Notes under the pieces: generated by a model
The model's database searches: none
Told to the model about the DNA's origin: nothing
What the model saw: only the letters and a program-made list of their open reading frames with translations
Translations under genes and position numbers: made by a program
In this document: in pieces, positions 12,300 to 56,310 of the stretch
Layout of the letters: every line of letters begins with the position of its first letter
Position numbering within the stretch: position 1 is the first letter of the stretch
Origin: Bradyrhizobium sp. CB1015
GTDB taxonomy: Bacteria > Pseudomonadota > Alphaproteobacteria > Rhizobiales > Xanthobacteraceae
NCBI RefSeq assembly: GCF_025200925.1
Contig: NZ_CP104174.1
Span: 7,316,001 to 7,380,000, forward strand
Direction: 5' to 3'
Length of the DNA stretch: 64,000 nt

Positions 12300-12375
12300 G
12301 GGCCTGTAGCTCAATGGTTAGAGCCGGCCGCTCATAACGGTCTGGTTGCAGGTTCGAGTCCTGCCGGGCCCACCA
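12300..12375 (+). tRNA. tRNA with CAU anticodon (tRNA-Ile2 or elongator tRNA-Met)
   Basis: A 76-base cloverleaf: acceptor GGGCCTG pairs with CGGGCCC (one G-U), D arm GCTC/GAGC, anticodon stem GGCCG/CGGTC with loop CTCATAA (anticodon CAT), T arm GCAGG-TTCGAGT-CCTGC, and encoded CCA. The overall form resembles lysidine-modified tRNA-Ile (CAU), but an elongator methionine identity cannot be excluded by eye. Its 3' 48 bases are duplicated at 55,513, making it the insertion site of the island that follows. Confidence 0.93.
12328..12375 (+). repeat. Direct repeat attL: 3' part of the tRNA
   Basis: These 48 bases, from the anticodon stem to the terminal CCA, recur without mismatch at 55,513-55,560. 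A direct repeat of a tRNA 3' end is the usual core site left by tyrosine-recombinase islands. The complete tRNA is kept on this side, so the far copy is the displaced half. Confidence 0.9.
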
Positions 12376-45335: not shown

Positions 45336-46082
45336 TCACGAAGTCAGATTCATCTTGGCGTCGAGAGTGGCCTCGAGCCAGTCGAGGTGCCGCCGCAACT
45401 CTTCCGCCCCCTCATGGCCCAGCACCTCGTCCGCCTCGCGCGGCTTCCATTCGGCTCCGAACGCGTTCCCGCCGTAAGCCGTCATCTCGGCCACAAGGAA
45501 ATCGGCGTCCTCGTCAAGCAGGCCGCTCGTCCGCGCCAGCGTGGCCACCTCATCCAGACCGCCGAAAGTCTCCGGACGCCAGCCGTCCCTAAACTTGGCC
45601 GCACCGTAGCGGTTCAACAGTTCGTATAGGCGTGGCGTCCTGCTCTCGATCGCGGCGCCGGCGAAGTTCGGCTCGATCCGGATCCCGACGGCTCTCGCTA
45701 GGTCATCGATCTCGTCGCGGCTGTCCGGATACGGATTGGCGCCGGCGTACCCGACCGTGTACGTCGGCGGGACGTGGCAAGCTGCGTGCCGCAAGCGCAC
45801 CCCCGCGCCCGGGGCGGCCACGATGATGCTGCCATGGATGGCGCCTTCGATGGGGTCGACGTTCGCGAGCATGAACCAGCGGTGAGGCGCGGGTCGGCTG
45901 GCGTTCTGCCGATGCTCGGCCGTGAACGGAACGTGGATTTCGGTGCCTGATGCACGTCGGGCGAAGTCGGCCTGTTCCGGCGTCGTGATCTCGACCCATG
46001 CCGGATAGCCGTGGCTCTCGGTGATCACGTTGAAATTCAACCGCCGGAATTCCTGCAGCCGCGGCAGCACTCTGGTGTCCAT
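45336..46082 (-). CDS. Hypothetical protein at the right transposon end
   Basis: A 248-residue protein, MDTRVLPRLQEFRRLNFNVI, with ESHGYPAWVEITTPEQADFA, WFMLANVDPIEGAIHGSIIV and DWLEATLDAKMNLTS. Good composition and a clear start, but no domain I recognise; mixed alpha/beta. A fragment with the same ESRTPRLFEL segment lies at 45,180-45,300 minus, so part of the gene is duplicated. As the outermost cargo gene it may be a conflict or defence gene. Confidence 0.55.
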   Translation of the reverse strand: MDTRVLPRLQEFRRLNFNVITESHGYPAWVEITTPEQADFARRASGTEIHVPFTAEHRQNASRPAPHRWFMLANVDPIEGAIHGSIIVAAPGAGVRLRHAACHVPPTYTVGYAGANPYPDSRDEIDDLARAVGIRIEPNFAGAAIESRTPRLYELLNRYGAAKFRDGWRPETFGGLDEVATLARTSGLLDEDADFLVAEMTAYGGNAFGAEWKPREADEVLGHEGAEELRRHLDWLEATLDAKMNLTS

Positions 46083-46172
46083 GACCGGCCTCCCTCCGCT
46101 GGGAGGGACCTTACGCGCCAGTCCGGCAAGGCGGAATCCTCAGAGTTAAAAAATCTGGAAAAACAACGAACT

Positions 46173-46305
46173 ACGAAATCGAGTCGTTCTTATCGTCAAA
46201 ATGGGCGGATCGAGTCGTTCTTAAAGCCCAAATCGAGTCGGACCCAAAATGCGCGATCGTGGGAAATCAAAGGCTTGCGCGAGTCGTTCTTATAGTGGAC
46301 CAACA
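46173..46305 (-). repeat. Right transposon-like end with four inverted sites
   Basis: CGAGTCGTTCT-type sites lie near 46,176-46,191, 46,208-46,222, 46,231-46,241 (degenerate) and 46,279-46,292, all inverse to the left-end sites. The terminus ...GTGGACCAACA at 46,305 mirrors the left TGTGCGGACAC. Spacings of 31, 23 and 46 bases suggest one decayed site between the last two. Confidence 0.72.
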
Positions 46306-46428
46306 TCACCTTGCCGGGCCGCGACAAGCACTCCAGTTCCGCTGAAGCGCGCGCAGGAGTTGTCGCGGGTTCGGGCTTGAAGAATGCGGAAAGTGGGTTC
46401 GCAGACGCGGACGACGTCGAGAGGGATC

Positions 46429-47843
46429 GTGTCCCTGAGCGTGGTGTAACTGGCGGTGGGACACCGCGTTCGCCGGCAAGAGCCGGACTGGTCAGCTGGC
46501 GATAGCCGGGAGGCTGACGGTTGGATCATCGCTCAACGGCGCGATGGTTTCCAGGGTCATGTAACGGGCGCGCTGGACGGCCCATTCATCATTCTGTTCG
46601 AGCAGGATCGCGCCGATGAGGCGGACGATAGCGTCCTCATTGGGGAAGATGCCGACGACCTCGGTCCGGCGCTTGATCTCGCCGTTGAGGCGCTCGATCG
46701 GGTTGGTCGAGTGCAGCTTGGTGCGGTGCTGCGGCGGGAACGTCATGTAGGCCAGCACATCGGTCTCGGCCTCGTCGAGGAAGCCGGCGAGCTTGGGTAG
46801 CTTGGGGCGGAGCTGATCGGCGACCTTCCGCCATTGCGCTCGTGCGGCCTCGGCATCGTCCTGGGCAAACGCAGTGGCGATGAAGGCGGAGACGACACGC
46901 CGTCCACTTTTGCCGGCATGGGCCAGCGCGTTGCGCATGAAGTGCACGCGGCAACGCTGCCAACTGGCGTTGAGCACCTTGGCGACGGTCGCCTTGATGC
47001 CCTCGTGGGCGTCGGAGACGACCAGCTTGACGCCGCGCAGGCCGCGGCGGGCGAGCTTGCGCAGGAACGCCGTCCAGAATGTCTCGGCCTCCGAGGGACC
47101 AATGTCCATGCCGAGAACTTCGCGCCGGCCATCGCTGTTGACGCCGACCGCGACGATCACCGCGACCGACACGATGCGCCCCTGCTGGCGCACCTTCACG
47201 TAGGTGGCGTCGATCCACAGATAGGGCCAATCGCCCTCGATCGGGCGAGCGAGGAACGCCTTCACCTTGTCATCGATCTCCGCGCACAGCCGCGAGACCT
47301 GGCTCTTGGAGATGCCGCTCATGCCCATCGCCCGCACCAGATCGTCGACGGAGCGGGTCGAGACGCCCTGCACATAAGCTTCCTGCACCACGGCGGTGAG
47401 CGCCTTCTCGGCCATCCGGCGCGGCTCCAGAAAGCCGGGGAAGTAGGAGCCTTTGCGCAGCTTGGGAATGCGCAGCTCGACCGTGCCGGCGCGGGTCTCC
47501 CAGGTCCGGTCGCGGTAGCCGTTGCGCTGCGCCAGACGCTCGGGGTTCTTCTCGCCGTAGGCGGCCCCGGTCTGGCCTTCCACTTCCAGCTCCATCAGGC
47601 GCTGGGCAGCAAAGCCGATCATCTCGCGCAGCAGATCCGCATCAGGGGTCTTCTCCACGAGCGTGCGGAGGTTCATCATCTCATCGGTCATCGGTGGTTC
47701 CTCGAATCAGGTTGGTGTCAGCAACCCGACCCTACCGGCGAACAGCCGGTGACCACCGCAAAGCCGCCCGCCCGCTACGGCGCCATGGGAGGGCGCGCGT
47801 GCGGACGGCTTTGCTCTACCGAGCTACACCATCACCGGGGACA
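46429..47843 (-). mobile_element. IS256-family insertion sequence, copy 2 (inverted)
   Basis: Nearly identical to copy 1 and in opposite orientation. Ends are GTGTCCCTGAGCGTGGTGTAAC (left) and GGTGATGG...GGGGACAC (right, inverse). It lies about 120 bases outside the right transposon-like end. Flanking 8-mers do not match each other. Confidence 0.88.
46492..47691 (-). CDS. IS256 (Mutator)-family transposase, copy 2
   Basis: A 399-residue transposase, intact, with the same catalytic regions as copy 1 ([26 protein letters not shown]). Only two residue differences separate them, so both could be active and can recombine with each other. Confidence 0.95.
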
Positions 47844-47911
47844 CGACCGCCGCAGGCGAGATGAGTGCGCGGACCGGGGGAATTGATGCAAAGGCTGTAA
47901 CCGCACCCGAA

Positions 47912-47955
47912 CGGATGTAGCCGATGTTACGGCTGCCAGACGAGCGCTACATCCG
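47912..47955. promoter_or_regulatory. 10-bp inverted repeat upstream of the secretion locus
   Basis: CGGATGTAGC at 47912-47921 and GCTACATCCG at 47946-47955 are exact reverse complements with a 24-base spacer, about 100 bases before the first secreted-protein gene. It may be an operator for the LuxR-type regulator at the far end of the locus or a leader hairpin. Function is inferred from position. Confidence 0.45.
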
Positions 47956-48053
47956 AACTGACGGCTGGGCATTCGACCTTCCCGGGACGACATTCTCTCC
48001 GGAGTGCAGAACCCGTCCGATCGCGCGGAGCGATTGCGATGAGGGAGGCTACG

Positions 48054-49466
48054 ATGGATTTTACGCGGATGTCGGATGCAATCCGGCTGCATCACGCCTC
48101 TCATCACCGCGATGGGTACGATGGCGCCGGCGAATTGGGCCCTGGGTCGAGTGTTCCGTTCGTGGCTGACCCGGTCGGAAGTGGCGCCCTTTTCCATCCT
48201 CCCGGCCCGTTTGCTGATCCTGGAGCATACGCCGCGAGCGCGAATACCCATCATAGAGACTCCGACCCCGTTCAATCCGAACATCCCCCATCGGGGAGCG
48301 GGATGGACGGCCACGCCGGCAACCACACTGCAGCGGGCCTGGACGTTTCGTCCACGACGCCTGCTGCCGGCGCATCCTTTCCCGAGAAGGGTATTGCTTC
48401 GGTCGAGAGTGGGGCGAACACGGCAGGGAACGGCGGGGATGGCCATTTTTACGGAGGTATCATTCACGCGTCCCTGTTGATCTACGAACCGATCAACATT
48501 TCGATCAGCGTGGGATACGGCTCGGTCGCCCTGGCCAACCAGTCCAACAATTTGAATGTTGATCAATCCGCTTTTCAAATGGCCGGCATCGGCGGCCCTG
48601 GCGGCAATGACAACATTGCAGCGGGTGGGAGCATCAGTACGTTTTCAGGCTCCGGCGTGATCGCGAGCGGCGACAACAGCGCCGGAAACGGCGGCAGCGG
48701 CCATTTCTCGGGTGCGATCGTGGACGCTCCCGTGGTGATCTATCATCCGATCAATATGGCGTTGGCGAGCTCGGGCGGCACTGCACATGCAAGTCAGTCG
48801 AACACGGTTGACATCGACCAATCGGCCACGCAGATCGCGGGCGTCGGCGGAAGTGGCGGACATGGCAATGTGGCCGCCGGCGGCAGCGTCATCACGCTCG
48901 ACCCCAGTTGGGGATCGAGCGTCTTCGACGTTCAAACGGGCGGAAGCCAGGCCGGCAATGGCGGTGACGGCCTGTTCTACGGGGAACTCGTCCATACCTC
49001 GTTTGTCGTGTACAACCCGATCAACATCGCGATCGCAGGCTATGGCTCCAGCGCTTACGCGGTCCAGATAAATGATGTCTCCATGGATCAATCCGCGGTC
49101 CAGATCGCTGGGATTGGCGGCCACGGCGGCAACGACAACGCCGCAGCGGGCGGCCATGCAAACCTTCTCTCCCATAATCTGTGGGGCGGGTCCGATACGA
49201 TCGCGACCGGTTCGAACAGCGCAGGCAATGGCGGCAACGGCTATTTTGCTGGCAGTCTGATCGACGTCAGCGTCGCGATCTATGCACCCATCAACATAGC
49301 AATCGCGGGTCCACATTCGACGGCCGTGGCCGATCAGGTCAACAACGTGCACATCGACCAGAGTGCGACCCAGATCGCCGGCGTTGGCGAGGACGGCGGC
49401 TACGGCAACCTCGCGCTAGGTGGCGATGCCGCGCATCTCTTGTCGGATCTTCACCTGGTGGCATAG
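48054..49466 (+). CDS. Glycine-rich four-repeat protein, predicted type I secretion substrate
   Basis: A 470-residue protein; ATG 48054 is chosen over 48039 because GGGAGG lies 6 bases before it. After a His/Pro/Gly-rich N-terminus (about 110 residues) come four units of 83-90 residues, each with AGNGGDGHFYG, YxPINIAIA, a spacer with xAxAxQxNxV, DQSAxQIAGxGG and GGxxNxAAGG. The pattern suggests a beta-helix. There is no N-terminal signal peptide, and the protein ends HLLSDLHLVA, an acidic/hydrophobic tail like type I signals. The exporter genes are directly downstream. No canonical RTX calcium nonapeptides are present. Confidence 0.75.
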   Translation: MDFTRMSDAIRLHHASHHRDGYDGAGELGPGSSVPFVADPVGSGALFHPPGPFADPGAYAASANTHHRDSDPVQSEHPPSGSGMDGHAGNHTAAGLDVSSTTPAAGASFPEKGIASVESGANTAGNGGDGHFYGGIIHASLLIYEPINISISVGYGSVALANQSNNLNVDQSAFQMAGIGGPGGNDNIAAGGSISTFSGSGVIASGDNSAGNGGSGHFSGAIVDAPVVIYHPINMALASSGGTAHASQSNTVDIDQSATQIAGVGGSGGHGNVAAGGSVITLDPSWGSSVFDVQTGGSQAGNGGDGLFYGELVHTSFVVYNPINIAIAGYGSSAYAVQINDVSMDQSAVQIAGIGGHGGNDNAAAGGHANLLSHNLWGGSDTIATGSNSAGNGGNGYFAGSLIDVSVAIYAPINIAIAGPHSTAVADQVNNVHIDQSATQIAGVGEDGGYGNLALGGDAAHLLSDLHLVA

Positions 49467-49716
49467 CGAAACGTCGCGTCGCTCGCATGGCTGATCGCAT
49501 CGCGGCACGCGCCGTCGCCGCTCTTCGCATGCAAAGCCCGCGCAGAGGCGCCCTCCCCGACGAAATGTCGTACTTTCGTACGTAGGCCCACCAAGCCGGA
49601 TGGTGTTCGATTTGACATCTATCGCTCTCGCGCATGGGCGGATCAGACTTGCCGTGCGCGTCCGCCTGATCGGGATGGATGTTGCACGACAGCCAACAAA
49701 GCGACGGAGGCCTCAA

Positions 49717-50175
49717 ATGATGCCAAAGGCAATCAACATCTCGGATACGATCAAGGTTAAATCGATCGACACCGGCGGTCAAAGTGACGGAAATGGCGGC
49801 GACGGTACTTTCAAGGGAGCCATCATCAGCAAGCCGACTGTCAACTACGATCCGACCAACAAGGCGGAAGGCGCCGACGTGCACGTGAGCACCGGCGATC
49901 ACGTCAAACAGACGGCGGATTGGGATGCCGGCGGCGCCAACGCCAAGGCCTCGGTGTTCTCCAAGGCTCATGGCGGAGACGCGGAGTCGAACGGCAGCCA
50001 GAAGTCCTACAGCGGCTACGATACCTCCAAGGTCTACGCCAATACGGATGCGACCCAGATCAACAAGCTCGCGGTGGACCAGCACCAGGAAGTTGTCGCC
50101 GGCATCGGCGGCGACGGCGGAGACGGCAACTTCGCATGGGGTGGCGGGGTGACCTTCCATCTCGACACGCTCTGA
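49717..50175 (+). CDS. Single-unit relative of the glycine-rich repeat protein
   Basis: A 152-residue protein starting MMPKAINISDTIKVKSIDTG after CGGAGG. It has one AGNGG-like unit: QSDGNGGDGTFKGAIISKPT, an inserted hydrophilic stretch (ADVHVSTGDHVKQTADWDAG), then VDQHQEVVAGIGGDGGDGNF and AWGGGVTFHLDTL at the end. It lacks a signal peptide and precedes the exporter genes, so it is probably secreted by the same system. It may be a partner, cap or polymer-starting subunit of the larger protein. Confidence 0.7.
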   Translation: MMPKAINISDTIKVKSIDTGGQSDGNGGDGTFKGAIISKPTVNYDPTNKAEGADVHVSTGDHVKQTADWDAGGANAKASVFSKAHGGDAESNGSQKSYSGYDTSKVYANTDATQINKLAVDQHQEVVAGIGGDGGDGNFAWGGGVTFHLDTL

Positions 50176-50316
50176 CCAGCCGCTCGTCCGACTGGCGGGA
50201 CCGGCGGCCGCGGCCGCCGGTCCCGGATTTCACGCCAAAGATCTACCGATGCCGTTGCCGGATTGCGTTGCCCATCAGTCAAGTGCGCCGGCCCCCGATT
50301 TCAGGCGGTGACGATC

Positions 50317-52053
50317 ATGCTGATGCCGCCCATTCGGTTGCCCATCCTGCCGCGGATCCGGACGCCACTGCACACCGCCCTCCGGTCCTGCGTGGGACCG
50401 CTAGGTCTCGTTTTCGCATATAGCTGCAGTTACAATCTGCTACTGTTTGCGCCCTCCATCTATCTTCTTCAGATCTACGACCGGGTGCTGTCGAGCCGGA
50501 GCGGCGACACGTTGCTCCTGCTCACGCTCATAGTCGCGATCACAGTGGTCGTCGGCGGCGTGTTCGATGCATTGCGACGCGCCGTCCTTGGACGCCTCGG
50601 CGCCTGGCTCGACGATCGCCTTCGTCCCTGCGTGCTTTCGGCCGGCCTCGAATCGGCGTTTCGCAGCGATTGGACGCAAGCGTCGGGCGCATATCGGGAT
50701 CTCACCGTGCTGCGCCAGTTCGTCGAGTCCGGCTCATGTACGATGCTGTTCGACGCGCTCTGGGCGCCCTTGTTCCTCCTTGTCCTCGTTCTGATCCATC
50801 CCCTGCTTGGCCTGGTGGGCGCCTGCTGCGTCGCCTTCCTGTTCGCACTCACGGTCGCCGGAGAGCTGGTCACGGAAGACGCTTTGCTCAGGTCCAACGC
50901 CGCGCTCTCCAGAAGCTACGGTCGCCTTCAGACTGCCGCGGGCAACATCCACATGATCCGCGCCATGGGAATGTTCGATAGCGCTGCGCGCATGATCCAC
51001 CGTGACGCGCAGCACGCGCGCAGAGAGCACGATGTGGCGCTCCGGCGAGGCGAGATCATCTCACTGGCCGCCAAGCCGGTTCGCGCGCTGTCGCAGGTCT
51101 TGATCATGGGAGCTGCCGCGTGGCTCGTCCTCGATCACGGGAAAAGTCCGGCAATCATCTTTGCTTCTACGCTGATGTTCAGCCGGGCGCTCGCGCCGGT
51201 CGAAAGTGCGGTCGCGGGCTGGAAATCACTCATGACGGCCGTGAGCGCCTGTCAGCGGCTCGGCGCACTTCTCGGCGCATTCCCCGTCGCGCGGCAGGAG
51301 AGTGCGGGGGTTTTCCCGCCGCAGGTGCGAAGCGGACTCGTCGTCGACAATGTGGGCGTGTGGCTTGCGGGGACTGACCATCTTCTGCTGAACGGCGTCT
51401 CCCTCAGCCTCATGCCCGGAGAATGCCTTGGCATCATCGGTCCGTCCGGGTCAGGCAAGTCCTTGCTCGGCCAGGTGATCGCCGGGCTGTCCATGCCGAC
51501 GCATGGCCGTGTCCTCCTCGACAATACCGACGTCTCGCTGCTTCGCGAGGGCCGAAACGGCGACGGCCTCGGATATCTCCCCCAGGACATCAATCTGATC
51601 GGCGACACCATCAACGACATCATCGCACGCCTCGAAGATGCCGACCGGCGGAAGGTCGTCGAAGCGGCCAAGCTCGCCGGAATCCATGGGGCGATCATGC
51701 GCCTGCCGCAGGGTTACGACACGGTGGTTCACAGTGAAACGATCTTCTCACGCGGGTATCGGCAGCGCCTCGGTCTTGCCCGCGCCTTTTTCGGCAGTCC
51801 ACGCCTCATCGTTCTCGACGAACCCAACGCCAGCCTCGACTACGGGGGCGAGCGAATGCTCCTGGATGCCATCGAGCGCATGAAGCTCGCAGGCGTCATC
51901 CTTGTCGTCGTCACTCACAGGATGGGTCTCCTCGCCGCCACGGACAAGATTGCCATCATGGAAGACGGTGCGGTCACCGCGTTCGGCGACAGCGAGGACA
52001 TCTTTGAACGGCACCTGAGCCGACCCCAGGTTACTTCGCAGGCTGCGCTATGA
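50317..52053 (+). CDS. Type I secretion ABC exporter (PrtD/LapB-like), atypical signature motif
   Basis: About 578 residues. The membrane domain covers residues 20-300 with six hydrophobic segments, followed by an ATPase domain: Walker A IIGPSGSGKSLLGQ near 377, Q-loop in LGYLPQDINLIGD, Walker B RLIVLDEP, D-loop NASLD and H-loop VVTHR. The signature motif reads IFSRGYRQRLGLAR where family members have LSGGQRQRI, an unusual change. ATG 50317 starts MLMPPIRLPILPR; a longer frame starts at 50,263. Its stop overlaps the next start by 4 bases (ATGA). Confidence 0.87.
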   Translation: MLMPPIRLPILPRIRTPLHTALRSCVGPLGLVFAYSCSYNLLLFAPSIYLLQIYDRVLSSRSGDTLLLLTLIVAITVVVGGVFDALRRAVLGRLGAWLDDRLRPCVLSAGLESAFRSDWTQASGAYRDLTVLRQFVESGSCTMLFDALWAPLFLLVLVLIHPLLGLVGACCVAFLFALTVAGELVTEDALLRSNAALSRSYGRLQTAAGNIHMIRAMGMFDSAARMIHRDAQHARREHDVALRRGEIISLAAKPVRALSQVLIMGAAAWLVLDHGKSPAIIFASTLMFSRALAPVESAVAGWKSLMTAVSACQRLGALLGAFPVARQESAGVFPPQVRSGLVVDNVGVWLAGTDHLLLNGVSLSLMPGECLGIIGPSGSGKSLLGQVIAGLSMPTHGRVLLDNTDVSLLREGRNGDGLGYLPQDINLIGDTINDIIARLEDADRRKVVEAAKLAGIHGAIMRLPQGYDTVVHSETIFSRGYRQRLGLARAFFGSPRLIVLDEPNASLDYGGERMLLDAIERMKLAGVILVVVTHRMGLLAATDKIAIMEDGAVTAFGDSEDIFERHLSRPQVTSQAAL

Positions 52054-53522
52054 TCTGGAATTCTCTCATCGTCTGGAGGCATCCTGCCGTCTCGAGACTT
52101 CCCATGATCTGGGACCGGCTCATGCGAGCGCCGGCGCGCTCCGCGCCCGCCCGACGATCCGGCGTCCTGGTAACCGCAATCGACGATTTCGAGCCTCTGG
52201 AATTTCCATGGTGCTCGACGCCTACGCCGATCTCGCCACGCGGAAGGCTTCGCGCTATCACCGTCGCGGGCAATCTGCTGGTGCTCTGCTTCATGCTGGG
52301 GCTTGGTACATGGGCGAGCCTCGCGCCTCTCGAGAGCGCCGCGATCGCGTCCGGCGTCGTGGAATCGGAATCGAGCCGGAAGACGATTCAGCATCTGGAA
52401 GGCGGTATCGTCAAAAGGATCCTGGTTTCGGATGGCGATATCGTACGAAGCGGCCAAACGTTGATCGCGCTGGACGACACCCGGGCCGGCTCGGAGATGC
52501 AGAGCCTTCAAGGCCAATTGTGGGATGCAGTTGCTCGTGCCGCACGGCTTCAAGCCGAGCAGCAGAGATTTGAAAGGGTCGCGATTCCGGACACGCTGGA
52601 ACAGGACAGCAAGCAGAACGGAGTGGCAGCCGCTGCGATGTCGGCGCAGCAGTTCATTTTTCAGGCACGCCTGCAGGTTCACGAGTCGCAGCTTGCCGTC
52701 ATTCGCGAACGAAGGCGTCAAGTCGAAAAGGAGATCGAAGGTCTCACGGCACAGGAGAGCGCCACCGAGCAGCGGGTCGGCATCGTCCGGGAGGAACTGG
52801 ATATGGTCGCGACCCTCGTCAACAAGGGGCTCGAACGGCGGCCGCGACTTCTGAACCTGCAGCGGGAGCTGGCCGACGTTGAGGGCCGCCGCGGCGAGAT
52901 CGCCGCGCAGATTTCCCGCGCCGCGCAAGTCATCAGCGAACAGCAGGCCACATTGTTCAAGCTCGAGAGTGAGAGGCAGAACGAGATCGCACAGTCGCTT
53001 CGTGAAGCACAGAACCAGATATTCCAGCTCCGCGAGCGGTTGCTTGCGGCCAGGGACCAGCTATCGCGAACAGAGGTCAAGGCGCCAGAGGACGGCGTGA
53101 TAACCGATTTGCGGATTCATACAGCCGGTGGCGTCATCGGAGCGGGCGCTCCGCTCATGGATCTGGTGCCCCGGCAAGACCGTCTGATCGTGACCGCGCG
53201 CCTGAGGCCCGAGGATATCGATGTGGTTCATCCCGGCCTCAATGCCGAGGTTCACCTCGTACCGTACAATCAGCGTCGCGTGCCTCGCCTGAAGGGAACT
53301 GTCGTGCACGTGTCGGCAGACCGGCTCCTCGACAAGCGTACCGACAAGCCATACTACGCGACCAAAATCCGGATCGACGACGCGCAGATCCTCGCAAACG
53401 ACATCCAGATCGTCCCCGGCATGCCGGTTCAAGTGTTCATCACGACAGGGCGCGGTACCGTGGCTCTCTACGCGCTCAGGCCTTTGCTCGACAGCTTCCG
53501 TGGTGCATTCAGAGAGGACTAA
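52050..53522 (+). CDS. Type I secretion membrane fusion protein (HlyD family)
   Basis: A 490-residue protein with a cytoplasmic N-terminus (about 70 residues), one membrane helix (ITVAGNLLVLCFMLGLGTWA), then a lipoyl half (SSRKTIQHLEGGIVKRILVS), a long coiled coil at residues 170-345, the second lipoyl half (LSRTEVKAPEDGVITDLRIH) and a C-terminal beta-barrel (YYATKIRIDDAQ; VPGMPVQVFITTGRGT). It bridges the ABC exporter to an outer-membrane TolC-type channel, which is not encoded nearby. Translationally coupled to the exporter. Confidence 0.92.
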   Translation: MIWNSLIVWRHPAVSRLPMIWDRLMRAPARSAPARRSGVLVTAIDDFEPLEFPWCSTPTPISPRGRLRAITVAGNLLVLCFMLGLGTWASLAPLESAAIASGVVESESSRKTIQHLEGGIVKRILVSDGDIVRSGQTLIALDDTRAGSEMQSLQGQLWDAVARAARLQAEQQRFERVAIPDTLEQDSKQNGVAAAAMSAQQFIFQARLQVHESQLAVIRERRRQVEKEIEGLTAQESATEQRVGIVREELDMVATLVNKGLERRPRLLNLQRELADVEGRRGEIAAQISRAAQVISEQQATLFKLESERQNEIAQSLREAQNQIFQLRERLLAARDQLSRTEVKAPEDGVITDLRIHTAGGVIGAGAPLMDLVPRQDRLIVTARLRPEDIDVVHPGLNAEVHLVPYNQRRVPRLKGTVVHVSADRLLDKRTDKPYYATKIRIDDAQILANDIQIVPGMPVQVFITTGRGTVALYALRPLLDSFRGAFRED

Positions 53523-54301
53523 GTCTCCTGCATCGGACCTGCGCCGGGTTCGTGATCGCGACCCTGCGCCGGCAACCGGCCGCGCCAGCGGAGCACGGCT
53601 TCCGTCCGATTGTGCGCGGCACATTTCCGCATGATATGCTGGATGTGCATTTTGACTGTGCTTTCCGATAGGTTCAATTTGGCGGCGATCAGCTTGTTGG
53701 GCAGGCCGAGCTCCAATTCCGCCAGCACCTGTTGCTCACGAGGCGTGAGATCCGTCACGCTCCTTTCGATAGTCACTCCAGCTCCCTCGTTCACAAGATA
53801 TGCGCGCGCAAGCCCGCGTGCATCTGGCGCCTCGAAATCAGGTATCCTGTTCATGCCGGCGACGGGCAACGGCCTGTAGACGCCGCCGACAAGGACAAGG
53901 CGCAGGCCAGCTATGGCGATCTCGATCGGCAGCGAGGTAGAAAGAAAGCCGCGCACGCCCCGCTGCATCGCGGCCTGCACGGTCGGCTCGTCGTCATGGT
54001 TCGACAGGATTGCAACGGCGGCGTTGGGACAACACTCCGCAACGAAGGCGAGACTGCCCGCAACCGAGGGATCGTCGATGGGCTTGTCCGCGATACTCAG
54101 CACCACCAGACGAACATCGCGGGTTGACGTGGAGTCCAGGCTTTCGACCGTTGCCATGTCGAGGATCTCGAATTCCGCCAATTCCCGCCTGAGGACGTTC
54201 AGAATGCATGTGCGAGGTAACAGGAGCGGGTCGACGATTACCAGAACCGGAAAGTGAAGCGATCCATCGAGCCGCTTTGAGGAGTTGGTTATGTCGTCCA
54301 T
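53519..54301 (-). CDS. LuxR/NarL-type response regulator with non-canonical receiver
   Basis: A 260-residue protein. Residues 15-130 have the receiver fold outline (FPVLVIVDPLLLPRTCILNV; AAVAILSNHDDEPTVQAAMQ), but the expected phospho-acceptor position reads RLVVLSIADKP with Ser in place of Asp. Residues 185-245 are a GerE-type HTH (DLTPREQQVLAELELGLPNK; LNLSESTVKMHIQHIMRK). ATG 54301 (MDDITNSS) is preferred to the longer frame. Its stop overlaps the stop of the convergent membrane fusion gene by about 2-3 bases. It probably regulates this secretion locus, independent of phosphorylation. Confidence 0.83.
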   Translation of the reverse strand: MDDITNSSKRLDGSLHFPVLVIVDPLLLPRTCILNVLRRELAEFEILDMATVESLDSTSTRDVRLVVLSIADKPIDDPSVAGSLAFVAECCPNAAVAILSNHDDEPTVQAAMQRGVRGFLSTSLPIEIAIAGLRLVLVGGVYRPLPVAGMNRIPDFEAPDARGLARAYLVNEGAGVTIERSVTDLTPREQQVLAELELGLPNKLIAAKLNLSESTVKMHIQHIMRKCAAHNRTEAVLRWRGRLPAQGRDHEPGAGPMQET

Positions 54302-54514
54302 GATTTCCTCGAGATGAAAAGAGCTTCCGCGATATTCCCATTCCGTATTGCATCTCCCCTGCTGCTGCATTCATCCTGAATGAACATCACGAGAGCGCCG
54401 CAGTGCCGCCGCCAGTGCCTTATCCACTGCGGGTTTACCTGGCGCCTGGGTGGAAATTCTTTCCGCTCAAATCATTTGGGCGCGTACCGCGCGGTGACGC
54501 AGTCGACGCATTCC

Positions 54515-55099
54515 CTAATTGCAGATATTTCGATACGCCGTTGACGCCGCCGACCCCGACTTGCCGTCGACGACATATGCTTCATCCTCCTTCACGAGAT
54601 AAAGAAACGGTCTCTCTGCGGTCTCGCCGCCTGATGCGCTTCTTCCTTTCACGCGCCCGCAAATCGTATCCACGGGGCGTCCAAGCGTGTTCTTTCGCAT
54701 CGTGCGCTTCATTTCGGTGAATTCGGCCGATCCCGGATCCTCCATCTTCGTGGCGATGGTGACCTTCGCCTTTTCTAGGACAGGATCTGATACTTCCGCG
54801 GGCCGTTCGGATGCCGGGACGCTGATCCTCGTCCGCGGTGACGCCGCTTTGGCGAGGTCGACCGATCCGCTCTTCTTTGGAGATGATTTCTTGCCGGACC
54901 TTCCCGGAGTTGCAGAATTCGTTTTGACGATCACGGGATCCGGCGCCAATGCCGTCGGCGTTGGCTGCGCGGGTCGGGCGACCGCAACCCGGTCGAAACA
55001 GGGTCGTGACGCGCACCCAAGGAAATACCCTCGGGAAGGCGCGAACCAGCCAAAGCCGATCAGGACTCCTGCCAGCACTCCAACAAAAAGCAGTCCCAT
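54515..55099 (-). CDS. Membrane-anchored hypothetical protein
   Basis: A 194-residue protein starting MGLLFVGVLAGVLIGFGWFA after GGGAGGGG. An N-terminal membrane helix is followed by a Pro/Ser/Lys-rich linker and a conserved C-terminal domain (KAKVTIATKMEDPGSAEFTE; GRPVDTICGRVKG; RPFLYLVKEDEAYVVDGKSG). The C-terminal part resembles a short domain frequent in Bradyrhizobium envelope proteins (recalled). No known function; next to the secretion regulator. Confidence 0.65.
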   Translation of the reverse strand: MGLLFVGVLAGVLIGFGWFAPSRGYFLGCASRPCFDRVAVARPAQPTPTALAPDPVIVKTNSATPGRSGKKSSPKKSGSVDLAKAASPRTRISVPASERPAEVSDPVLEKAKVTIATKMEDPGSAEFTEMKRTMRKNTLGRPVDTICGRVKGRSASGGETAERPFLYLVKEDEAYVVDGKSGSAASTAYRNICN

Positions 55100-55512
55100 C
55101 CGATTCCCCTCCCTGGGAACTCGGCTCGCACTTGTAACTAGGACTAATTCCGCGCTGGTGATCCATCTGTTGCGCAAAAGCGTTAAACGCCCATTAAGGT
55201 CGCAGTCGTCTGGACCATGCCTGGATCGGCGGATCAGATCGGGCTCCAGGCCCGTGCCGAGATTGCCGCAAAAGGCCAATCGTGAAGGCAAACATAGCCT
55301 GAGTCGGTCCGCTCTTGGACCCCTCTGCAACTTGCATGTTCGAAGATCCGCTTTGCACCACCAAAGGCTGCCGATCACCGGCTTATGGCTCTCGGGCCGA
55401 TTCCGGAGCGCCGCACCAGTTTCGCACCAGAAACGGCGTGAACGAAACGGAACGAAGGCAGTTGGGATCGAGCAAAACCGCAGGAAGATCAACGAAGCTG
55501 ACCAATATTCTC
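55100..55512. other. No recognised gene at the right end of the island
   Basis: About 410 bases between the membrane-anchored protein and the right attachment repeat. No integrase, excisionase or repeat array is visible. A GGTGCGAAAC-type inverted pair (GCACCAGTTTCGCACCAG) near 55,410 is a weak candidate for recombinase arm sites. Confidence 0.35.
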
Positions 55513-55560
55513 CCGCTCATAACGGTCTGGTTGCAGGTTCGAGTCCTGCCGGGCCCACCA
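55513..55560 (+). repeat. Direct repeat attR: displaced 3' part of the tRNA
   Basis: An exact 48-base copy of the tRNA 3' half at 12,328-12,375, ending GGGCCCACCA. The 5' half is absent, so it is not a functional tRNA. It marks the right boundary of the integrated island. Confidence 0.9.
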
Positions 55561-55938
55561 CGCTTCGCCCTTCGGGCTACGCGTGGCTCAGCCAAGCAGA
55601 CGGCCCGAAGGGCGAAGTGTGTCCGGCATAGCTGGAGCGCAGCGGAAGCGACGACGGACTGGCGCGGTGAGATTCGACTAGGCGAGCCAGTGCCACACAT
55701 TAGAAGCCAAGCGAGTGAAGGCTGCCGCGCCGAAGCTCGCAGGGCGAAGGCGGGCTGCTGCTATGCGGAGGACCGAAAGACGAGGCGCCTGGCGTCACTG
55801 GAGCGCAGCGGAAGGGAAGCCTCTCCGGGCTCAAGGAAATGCACTACCGAGGTCAGCCGAGTTTTGTGCACTGTGACTGTAATCCAAGTGCCATGCTGGT
55901 TTTAGTACGCATATTACGATTACCTGCGCGTTCAGACC
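55561..55938. other. Post-tRNA intergenic DNA
   Basis: Starts with CGCTTCGCCCTTCGGGCTACG, a sequence style often found directly after tRNA genes in Bradyrhizobium, with an imperfect inverse GGCCCGAAGGGCGAAG 30 bases on. This would be the original downstream sequence of the tRNA before island entry. No gene recognised. Confidence 0.5.
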
Positions 55939-56310
55939 ATGAAACCGATTGCACCTACGCAATGGAGCTTTCTCAAGCGCTATCAACGCGCCCTAGATAG
56001 CAAAGAGTGTCTGTCCAAGCGCTTCGGCGGGGGCGACTGCGATGGCAGGATCGTTCACGCGCACATGATTCCTCGCTCGCAGCTCTTACAAATTGCTCAG
56101 CAAGGCCACGACCACGCCGTTCCTACTCGCCTTTCACCCATCGCACAGATGAAGAGATCCGGCTTTCAGGCGGAAGATATCGGTATAGGCAACTTCTCGA
56201 CGCTACAGTGCTTCTGCGCACGTCATAACAAGAATCTGTTTGCGCCTTTGGAGGACGTAGCACTCACCTTCACACGCGAACAACTTACCCTGCTACATTA
56301 TAGAGCGATG
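55939..56310 (+). pseudogene. N-terminal part of an HNH-like/zinc-binding protein, 3' truncated
   Basis: About 125 residues are gene-like: CDGRIVHAHMIPRSQLLQIA, IGIGNFSTLQCFCARHNKNL, FAPLEDVALTFTREQLTLLH and a YRA end. The H-x-H...R-x-x-L, FCxxHNxxLFAPLE and EQ-LL-YRA pattern belongs to a family of uncharacterised proteins with an HNH-like zinc site. After about 56,310 the frame runs antisense through the next gene, so the C-terminal part has been lost. Its role could be nucleolytic, but that is inference. Confidence 0.55.

What the first reader, a model, noticed from the sequence alone, without database searches (positions are those of the whole stretch)
48054..54301. Self-contained type I secretion locus exporting a novel four-repeat glycine-rich protein and a single-unit partner
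Seen: a 470-residue protein with four units of 83-90 residues (AGNGG-x-G-x-F-x-G ... Y-x-PINIAIA ... DQSA-x-QIAG-x-GG ... AAGG), a 152-residue protein with one related unit and an insert, then a PrtD-type ABC exporter and HlyD-type fusion protein overlapping by ATGA, and a convergent LuxR regulator. Known: type I systems carry substrates next to ABC/HlyD genes and use uncleaved C-terminal signals. Inferred: both proteins are secreted, may assemble on the cell surface or in the matrix (large plus small subunit), and the regulator controls them. The repeats are not RTX nonapeptides and I cannot assign them to a named family, so this is the best candidate for an undescribed secreted polymer, adhesin or biofilm system.
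Basis: partly seen in the sequence, partly recalled or inferred. Interest (0 to 1): 0.78.

Follow-up and report, generated by a model that had tools for sequence, protein, structure and literature searches.

The report
Likely cargo of orphan rhizobial exporter
Two undescribed repeat proteins sit beside one dedicated export pump in many root-nodule and soil bacteria, and are probably the missing cargo of a pump described in 2008 whose cargo was not found.

Summary
A 470-residue protein (LRG, four units) and a 152-residue relative (SML) precede a PrtD-type ABC exporter, an HlyD-type adaptor and a convergent LuxR-type gene. LRG and SML match no Pfam, NCBIfam or PHROG family. This is no lone novelty. 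In 146 genomes of the genus, LRG, SML and this ABC clade occur in the same 53. Of 80 named loci (mainly Rhizobium, Phyllobacterium, Ensifer, Bradyrhizobium), 78 carry all five genes; the other two are cut by contig ends. Gene order varies; flanking genes do not persist. In R. leguminosarum 3841 the pair lies where tobDE should be, a system called 'enigmatic' in 2008 because no substrate was found. LRG repeats almost lack Lys and Arg (none in the last 320 residues of 73 of 79 loci), so trypsin-based identification, as used then, is nearly blind to LRG. Best reading: LRG and SML are TobDE's two dedicated substrates. The best AlphaFold2 model shows locally confident long strands, with only weak matches to beta-solenoids, FapC and curli among them. 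A surface or matrix role is inference; a tobD mutant had normal biofilm rings and nodulation as tested.

The parts
47890..48053 (+). Conserved region upstream of LRG, probable promoter and leader; includes GATGTAGCCGATGTTA at 47914 and CCGAACTGACGGCTGGGC at 47953
   Evidence: Alignment of 9 loci: conservation rises sharply about here. A related block is conserved upstream of LRG in 9 more distant Bradyrhizobium loci (10 tried, 9 aligned). The second motif, copied from this place, does not recur elsewhere in the window within 3 mismatches; 21 of 100 shuffles gave a match, so this is no evidence of function.
48054..49466 (+). LRG: 470-aa four-unit glycine-rich protein, predicted type I substrate
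   Evidence: no Pfam, NCBIfam or PHROG match up to E 1 and no PDB match by single sequence; dN/dS 0.30-0.45 against 6 relatives.
48054..48404 (+). LRG residues 1-117: predicted disordered N-terminal region
   Evidence: pLDDT below 50; residues 21-117 poorly conserved, 2.52 bits.
49404..49463 (+). LRG residues 451-470: conserved, predicted unstructured C-terminal tail, candidate uncleaved secretion signal
   Evidence: pLDDT below 50 yet 3.74 bits conservation, against 3.64 for residues 118-450 (alignment of 50 close relatives); HLLSDLHL-type ending in the Bradyrhizobium loci.
49717..50175 (+). SML: 152-aa single-unit relative with an insert, predicted second substrate
   Evidence: dN/dS 0.07-0.20 against 6 relatives; no family or PDB match.
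50317..52053 (+). PrtD-type ABC exporter, orthologue of TobD
   Evidence: TIGR01842 496.9 bits, cut-off 510.15; 53% identical to the tob-position ABC of R. leguminosarum 3841, against 35% and 32% for its other two PrtD-type ABCs. Start codon not certain.
52050..53522 (+). HlyD-type membrane fusion protein (TobE position)
   Evidence: TIGR01843 379.3 bits, cut-off 208.65; ATGA overlap with the ABC gene.
53519..54301 (-). LuxR/NarL-type regulator with a receiver-like N-terminal domain
   Evidence: GerE domain PF00196 6e-19; present in 23 of 23 fetched relatives and in 79 of 80 named loci (the other is cut by a contig end).
54515..55099 (-). Sixth conserved gene: about 194 aa, N-terminal hydrophobic segment, low-complexity linker, conserved C-terminal part; unknown function
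   Evidence: In all 23 Bradyrhizobium-type loci and 25 of 26 named Bradyrhizobium loci (the other is cut by a contig end); not detected in the 54 other named loci; no Pfam match.
46492..47691 (-). IS256-family transposase just upstream; not part of the system
   Evidence: NF033543 352.5 bits, cut-off 150; not among the conserved neighbours.

Best explanation
The locus is the Bradyrhizobium orthologue of the orphan TobDE type I secretion system of Rhizobium leguminosarum. LRG and SML are its two dedicated substrates. Both appear to lack an N-terminal signal peptide (by inspection), and are passed unfolded from the cytoplasm through the ABC protein, the HlyD-type adaptor and a TolC-type channel encoded elsewhere, probably using an uncleaved C-terminal signal. 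Outside, the LRG units fold into glycine-linked repeats of long beta-strands with conserved Ala/Gln/Asn/Val on one face. Because LRG and SML share the unit and always occur together in the loci seen, they probably assemble or act together at the cell surface or in the matrix, under conditions set by the linked LuxR-type regulator. Shown here: the genes, families, linkage, conservation and composition. Inferred: secretion, the signal, co-assembly, regulation and biological role.
For: Linkage: LRG in 53 of 146, SML in the same 53, and the ABC at 61% identity or more in the same 53 genomes of a genus sample (own genome included); the other ABC matches listed there are 35-41% identical. All five genes in 23 of 23 relatives fetched and 78 of 80 named loci, the two exceptions cut by contig ends. 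Two arrangements keep the same set (37 loci divergent, 41 collinear) while the flanks change. Family: TIGR01843 over cut-off; TIGR01842 just under it in the window and over it (535.3 bits) in 3841. Orthology: the three over-cut-off PrtD-type ABCs of 3841 lie at 0.09, 0.67 and 3.85 Mb, matching the gene numbers RL0072 (toaD), RL0623 (tobD) and RL3658 (prsD) of PMC2275737; the window ABC is 53% identical to the middle one. PMC2275737 itself notes a 52%-identical B. japonicum protein with similar surroundings. The clade has its own signature: (S/P)RG(Y/F/L)RQ in place of the usual LSGGQ-type motif in 23 of 23 ABCs read (24 tried). Substrate character: no Cys, pI 4.6 and 5.0; LRG has 1.3% K+R, the lowest of 50 long non-overlapping ORFs of the window, the next being 9.3%; LRG's C-terminal tail is conserved but predicted unstructured. 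Selection: dN/dS 0.07-0.45 for the five genes. Strands: alternation of conservation exceeds all 5000 permutations, the strands being taken from the model.
Against: No secretion experiment on these proteins was found. In 3841 the tobD mutant showed no change of supernatant protein bands, biofilm rings or nodulation, and double and triple mutants looked like prsD alone. The authors also considered that TobDE might export something other than protein. SML has three Lys in 3841 and some usable tryptic peptides, so poor detection explains its absence less well. The C-terminal tails of SML differ between clades, so no single signal motif is seen. SML was not modelled well (mean pLDDT 43), and the other four LRG models had mean pLDDT 43, 38, 30 and 27. 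Constant linkage alone does not prove a transport relation.
Confidence: 0.74

Rival explanations
1. The exporter carries a small molecule or polysaccharide; LRG and SML are accessory proteins (scaffold, regulator or processing factor) rather than its cargo.
For: PMC2275737 raises non-protein cargo for TobDE after finding no missing bands.
Against: The ABC is closest to the PrtD protein-exporter model and is paired with a type I HlyD adaptor; LRG and SML are Cys-free and acidic, and LRG has a conserved tail, as expected of type I cargo.
Confidence: 0.12
2. LRG and SML form a functional amyloid or beta-solenoid polymer, a curli- or FapC-like matrix exported by a type I system (this refines rather than excludes the best explanation).
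For: Foldseek's two best PDB matches are FapC (E 0.023) and a CsgA (E 0.08); strands carry regular Ala/Gln/Asn/Val positions; Gly, Ala, Ser and Asn make up half of LRG; CsgD is among the weak, sub-cut-off matches of the regulator, which rest on the shared HTH domain.
Confidence: 0.3
3. The pair is a secreted antagonistic protein (rhizobiocin-like) or a host-directed effector.
For: PMC2275737 mentions rhizobial bacteriocins exported by type I-related systems. A chromosomal 'PE-PGRS family protein', the label also given to SML homologues, was among 17 genes linked to nodulation of pea cv. Afghanistan in a comparison of eight strains (PMC8457355); its identity with this locus is unproven.
Against: No domain of any kind matched in LRG or SML; the repeat architecture is more typical of structural proteins; nodulation of pea, broad bean and vetch did not need tobD.
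Confidence: 0.1
4. Ordinary RTX-type calcium-binding exoprotein that standard models miss.
For: Gly/Asp/Asn-rich turns and a type I exporter next door; one GGxGxD sequence in SML.
Against: No Pfam match up to E 1; GGxGxD occurs 0 times in LRG and once in SML, and the full nonapeptide GGxGxDxUx 0 times in both; the period is 83-90 residues.
Confidence: 0.04

Closest known systems
TobDE (RL0623/RL0622), orphan type I system of Rhizobium leguminosarum 3841 (PMC2275737)
   Same: Orthologous ABC (53% identity), same adaptor type, and LRG, SML and LuxR-type homologues beside it (L149).
   Different: The paper identified no substrate and said that no gene within 10 kb encodes a known type I substrate; here LRG and SML are proposed. 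In 3841 LRG points away from SML-ABC-HlyD; in the window all four are collinear.
PrsDE of Rhizobium and its substrates (Rap, Ply, NodO and others)
   Same: PrtD/HlyD-type exporter; signal-peptide-free secreted proteins (PMC2275737).
   Different: Different ABC clade (32% identity). PrsDE cargo includes cadherin-like, RTX and glycanase proteins; LRG and SML match no Pfam family. PrsDE serves many scattered substrates; this system appears dedicated to its neighbours.
Curli (CsgA) and FapC functional amyloids
   Same: Secreted beta-repeat proteins (recalled: with regularly spaced Gln, Asn and Ala); best though insignificant fold matches.
   Different: Longer unit (83-90 aa), different export route, no sequence similarity found, no assembly evidence.
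PE-PGRS proteins (the database label of several homologues)
   Same: Glycine-rich composition only.
   Different: No PE domain match; in rhizobia, linked to a type I exporter. The label looks like a composition artefact.

Membership tests
Type I secretion system (PrtD/HlyD type) | ABC exporter of the PrtD subfamily | tested here: inconclusive
   TIGR01842 is the best NCBIfam match, 496.9 bits against a cut-off of 510.15; its orthologue in 3841 passes at 535.3.
Type I secretion system (PrtD/HlyD type) | HlyD-family type I adaptor | tested here: met
   TIGR01843 379.3 bits, cut-off 208.65.
Type I secretion system (PrtD/HlyD type) | TolC-type outer-membrane channel available | tested here: met
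   Not in the locus; 2 of 5 matches elsewhere in the genome pass the TIGR01844 cut-off. Which one is used is unknown.
Type I secretion system (PrtD/HlyD type) | Exporter-dependent secretion of the neighbouring proteins | not testable with these tools
   Needs the experiment described under decisive next steps.
Tob locus (orthology) | Best match to TobD rather than ToaD or PrsD, with the same neighbours | tested here: met
   53% against 35% and 32%; LRG, SML, HlyD and LuxR-type homologues adjacent in L149; position agrees with the published gene numbers. The RL numbers of LRG and SML were not verified.
RTX exoproteins | GGxGxDxUx calcium-binding nonapeptide repeats | tested here: not met
   0 in LRG and 0 in SML; no Pfam match at E up to 1.
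Curli / FapC functional amyloids | Curlin or Fap repeat at sequence level | tested here: not met
   No Pfam match at E up to 1; no PDB sequence match, and by the LRG profile only one hit at E 1.9, a receptor fusion that looks unrelated.
Curli / FapC functional amyloids | Shared fold | tested here: inconclusive
PE-PGRS | PE domain | tested here: not met
   No Pfam match at E up to 1.
Response regulator (NarL type) | Phospho-accepting Asp in the receiver | tested here: inconclusive
   In an alignment of 24 loci the position that I take for it reads Ser 11, Asn 11, Thr 1 and Asp 1 (the Asp in L083); the position was picked by eye, not by alignment to a solved receiver.

The most novel reading that the evidence does not exclude
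TobDE exports a two-component, nearly Lys/Arg-free beta-solenoid polymer: LRG as the multi-unit building block and SML as a single-unit cap, nucleator or linker. It would be a new kind of type I-secreted structural fibre of rhizobia, overlooked because trypsin-based proteomics, and probably Coomassie staining, barely see it.
Probability: 0.27. Interest if true: 0.85.

Novelty: new variant of a known kind. Interest (0 to 1): 0.63.

Why it matters
In the open-licence literature searched, TobDE has stood as a secretion system without a known cargo since 2008. This gives two specific candidate substrates and a concrete reason why the earlier screen could hardly identify the main one. LRG of strain 3841 would give a single tryptic peptide in the 700-4000 Da range (13-17 aa) plus one 348-aa piece of about 33.7 kDa, while the published work identified bands by tryptic MALDI fingerprints after colloidal Coomassie G staining. 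The tobD::Tn5 mutant described there makes the question directly testable. Trypsin-based proteomes of these bacteria would share the blind spot. A new family of repeat proteins with its own exporter also widens what type I systems are known to carry.

Tried and rejected
RTX, curlin, PE and phage families: no Pfam, NCBIfam or PHROG match for LRG or SML. Anti-phage defence: PADLOC gives nothing for LRG, SML or the sixth gene, and for the LuxR-type protein only matches to its HTH end. Rfam 46000-56000: none. tRNA: one in the whole window, at 12300-12375, far from the locus. PDB by sequence or profile: nothing for LRG or SML but one hit at E 1.9 that looks unrelated. The SML structure model is unusable, so no fold claim is made for it. 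Families absent from the fold lists are not thereby excluded, since VIA looked at 106 Foldseek-ranked chains only. The GATGTAGCCGATGTTA motif was considered as a shared regulator box: it lies upstream of LRG in the window and in L061-L067 with up to 2 mismatches, but not in L068, and in the other 23 loci scanned it is absent, upstream of LRG with 3 mismatches (L073, L076), or matched elsewhere with 3 mismatches; it is not claimed as a general site (32 sources scanned). RL0626, listed as growth-defective in a transposon screen (PMC5118466, passages seen), could not be assigned to a gene of this locus; TA-site counts fit more than one ORF. Heat- or salt-induced HlyD genes of R. etli (PMC4167512, passages seen) and RosR targets (PMC4696191, passages seen) could not be tied to this locus. 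The B. japonicum CPAC 15 paper (PMC4070871, passages seen) mentions Gly/Asp-rich type I proteins without enough detail in those passages to match. The review PMC10925705 names tobDE in one passage without giving a cargo for it there. Searches behind the statement that I found no paper on the substrates of TobDE: (open-licence PMC only; most subscription papers and all preprints are missing; supplements were not available).
Full report
What is there. The window is bases 7316001-7380000 of an 8.41 Mb single-contig genome that belongs with Bradyrhizobium by its closest protein hits.

The repeats are real. Units of 86, 90, 90 and 83 residues align pairwise at z 23.0-30.1 over 300 shuffles each; SML aligns with each unit at z 9.2-10.5; no shuffle reached the observed score in any of the ten comparisons. 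Of 121 LRG-type proteins examined (the window's own and 120 listed hits), 88 score four by both of two rough unit markers; the longest, 741 and 769 residues, score eight by one marker and one by the other, so unit number seems to vary but the count is approximate.

Families. LRG and SML match nothing in Pfam, NCBIfam or PHROGs up to E 1. The RTX nonapeptide occurs 0 times in both. HlyD passes TIGR01843; ABC has PrtD (TIGR01842) as best model, 13 bits below its cut-off. TolC-type genes are elsewhere: five matches, two over cut-off.

How far it is spread. In 100 relatives (own genome included) LRG and SML occur in the same 24. In 146 genomes of the genus (own included), LRG, SML and ABC at 61% identity or more occur in the same 53; I compared the lists by eye. 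Eleven further genomes have only ABC matches of 35-41% identity at the cut-off used (E 1e-100). In 397 genomes of the order 6 have SML, the window's own included; in 385 of the class only the window's own does. These searches score a limited number of first-look candidates per genome. A scan of named genomes gave 105 relatives, of which the best 80 are listed: mainly Rhizobium, Phyllobacterium, Ensifer/Sinorhizobium and Bradyrhizobium, some named only as Rhizobiales.

The set stays together. All five genes are present in 23 of 23 fetched relatives and in 78 of 80 named loci; L162 and L174 lack genes at the end of their contigs. Of the 78, 37 have LRG and the LuxR-type gene divergent from SML-ABC-HlyD, and 41 have the window's order. 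Genes outside the set recur in at most 5 other loci of 23, apart from the sixth gene (a greedy choice of ORFs compared at E 1e-20; the more frequent unnamed ORFs there lie opposite to HlyD, where that choice displaced it). Keeping the set through rearrangement and changing surroundings argues for a functional unit. dN/dS against six relatives is 0.30-0.45 for LRG, 0.07-0.20 for SML, 0.21-0.24 for ABC, 0.16-0.30 for HlyD and 0.11-0.38 for the LuxR-type gene. The ABC clade carries (S/P)RG(Y/F/L)RQ where most ABC proteins have an LSGGQ-type signature (recalled), in 23 of 23 read; one of 24 could not be read.

Identity with Tob. R. leguminosarum 3841 (now R. johnstonii, L149) carries the set at about 669-676 kb of its chromosome. 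Its three PrtD-type ABCs over cut-off lie at 91.5 kb, 670.9 kb and 3.854 Mb, in the order of RL0072 (toaD), RL0623 (tobD) and RL3658 (prsD) in PMC2275737. The window ABC is 53% identical to the middle one and 35% and 32% to the others. I read passages of that paper, not the whole text. It reports that no gene within 10 kb of tobDE encodes a known type I substrate, that tobD single, double and triple mutants showed no change in supernatant bands beyond the prsD effect, that biofilm rings and nodulation were unaffected by tobD, and that a 52%-identical B. japonicum protein has similar surroundings; it calls the system enigmatic, and names unsuitable growth conditions, gel resolution or a non-protein cargo as possible reasons.

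Why the substrate could have been missed. LRG has one Lys and four Arg, none of them in residues 118-470. In 73 of 79 named-locus LRG reading frames picked out by a residue pattern (80 loci tried), the last 320 residues have no Lys or Arg; the other six have one or two. LRG has the lowest K+R fraction of 50 long non-overlapping ORFs of the window, 1.3% against 9.3% for the next; these ORFs are mechanical picks, not annotated genes. For 3841 LRG trypsin would give one peptide in the 700-4000 Da range and one 348-residue piece. The paper identified bands by tryptic MALDI fingerprinting from a colloidal Coomassie G gel (its Fig. 6); how the gel comparing the mutants (Fig. 5) was stained I did not see. 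That Coomassie binds basic residues is recalled knowledge. SML of 3841 has three Lys and two usable peptides covering 25 residues; SML of the window has nine, so this argument holds for LRG more than for SML. It does not prove that LRG was secreted in that medium; the genes may simply have been silent.

Signals and regulation. LRG residues 451-470 are predicted unstructured yet conserved at 3.74 bits, against 2.52 for residues 21-117 of the other disordered part; residues 1-20 are also conserved, at 3.57. The tail is a good candidate for a C-terminal export signal; no signal predictor was available. SML tails differ by clade. Upstream of LRG about 165 bp are conserved among nine loci while sequence further out is mostly not, with a related block in nine more distant loci. 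The LuxR-type protein has a receiver-like N-terminal domain; at the position that I take for the phospho-accepting Asp, 24 loci read Ser 11, Asn 11, Thr 1, Asp 1, which hints at phosphorylation-independent control in Bradyrhizobium.

Judgement. That LRG and SML are the dedicated cargo of this exporter I hold at about 0.74. That they form a structural surface polymer I hold at about 0.27-0.3, with the normal biofilm of the tobD mutant as the main result against it. A possible symbiotic link exists only as a lead: PMC8457355 (one section and passages read) lists a chromosomal 'PE-PGRS family protein' among 17 genes linked to nodulation of one pea cultivar in a comparison of eight strains; SML homologues bear the same label, but identity was not tested.

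Noticed in passing
46492-47691: IS256-family transposase gene ends about 360 bp before LRG; the LRG upstream region is conserved only from about 47890, so the element lies just outside it.
   Followed up: partly
51740-51790: The ABC signature region reads SRGYRQRLGLARAF rather than an LSGGQ-type motif; (S/P)RG(Y/F/L)RQ is kept in 23 of 23 orthologues read (24 tried), so it may mark this exporter clade.
   Followed up: partly
54515-55099 (-): Sixth gene linked to the set, found in Bradyrhizobium loci only: hydrophobic N-terminus, low-complexity linker, conserved C-terminal part; weak NCBIfam match to a GspB model far below cut-off.
   Followed up: partly
P0077 and P0080 (metagenome proteins, 741 and 769 aa): LRG relatives with apparently more than four units, so unit number seems to vary naturally.
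   Followed up: partly
48054-48113: The first 20 residues of LRG are conserved (3.57 bits) although predicted disordered, and run into a His-rich stretch; possible metal binding or targeting.
   Followed up: no
L149 6759-7046 (-): A 95-aa ORF between LRG and the LuxR-type gene of 3841 has 13 TA sites, the number listed for growth-defective RL0626 in PMC5118466; SML has 13 too, so the link is only a guess.
   Followed up: partly
53519-54301 (-): The LuxR-type protein seems to have lost the receiver Asp in Bradyrhizobium but kept it in the Rhizobium locus L083.
   Followed up: partly
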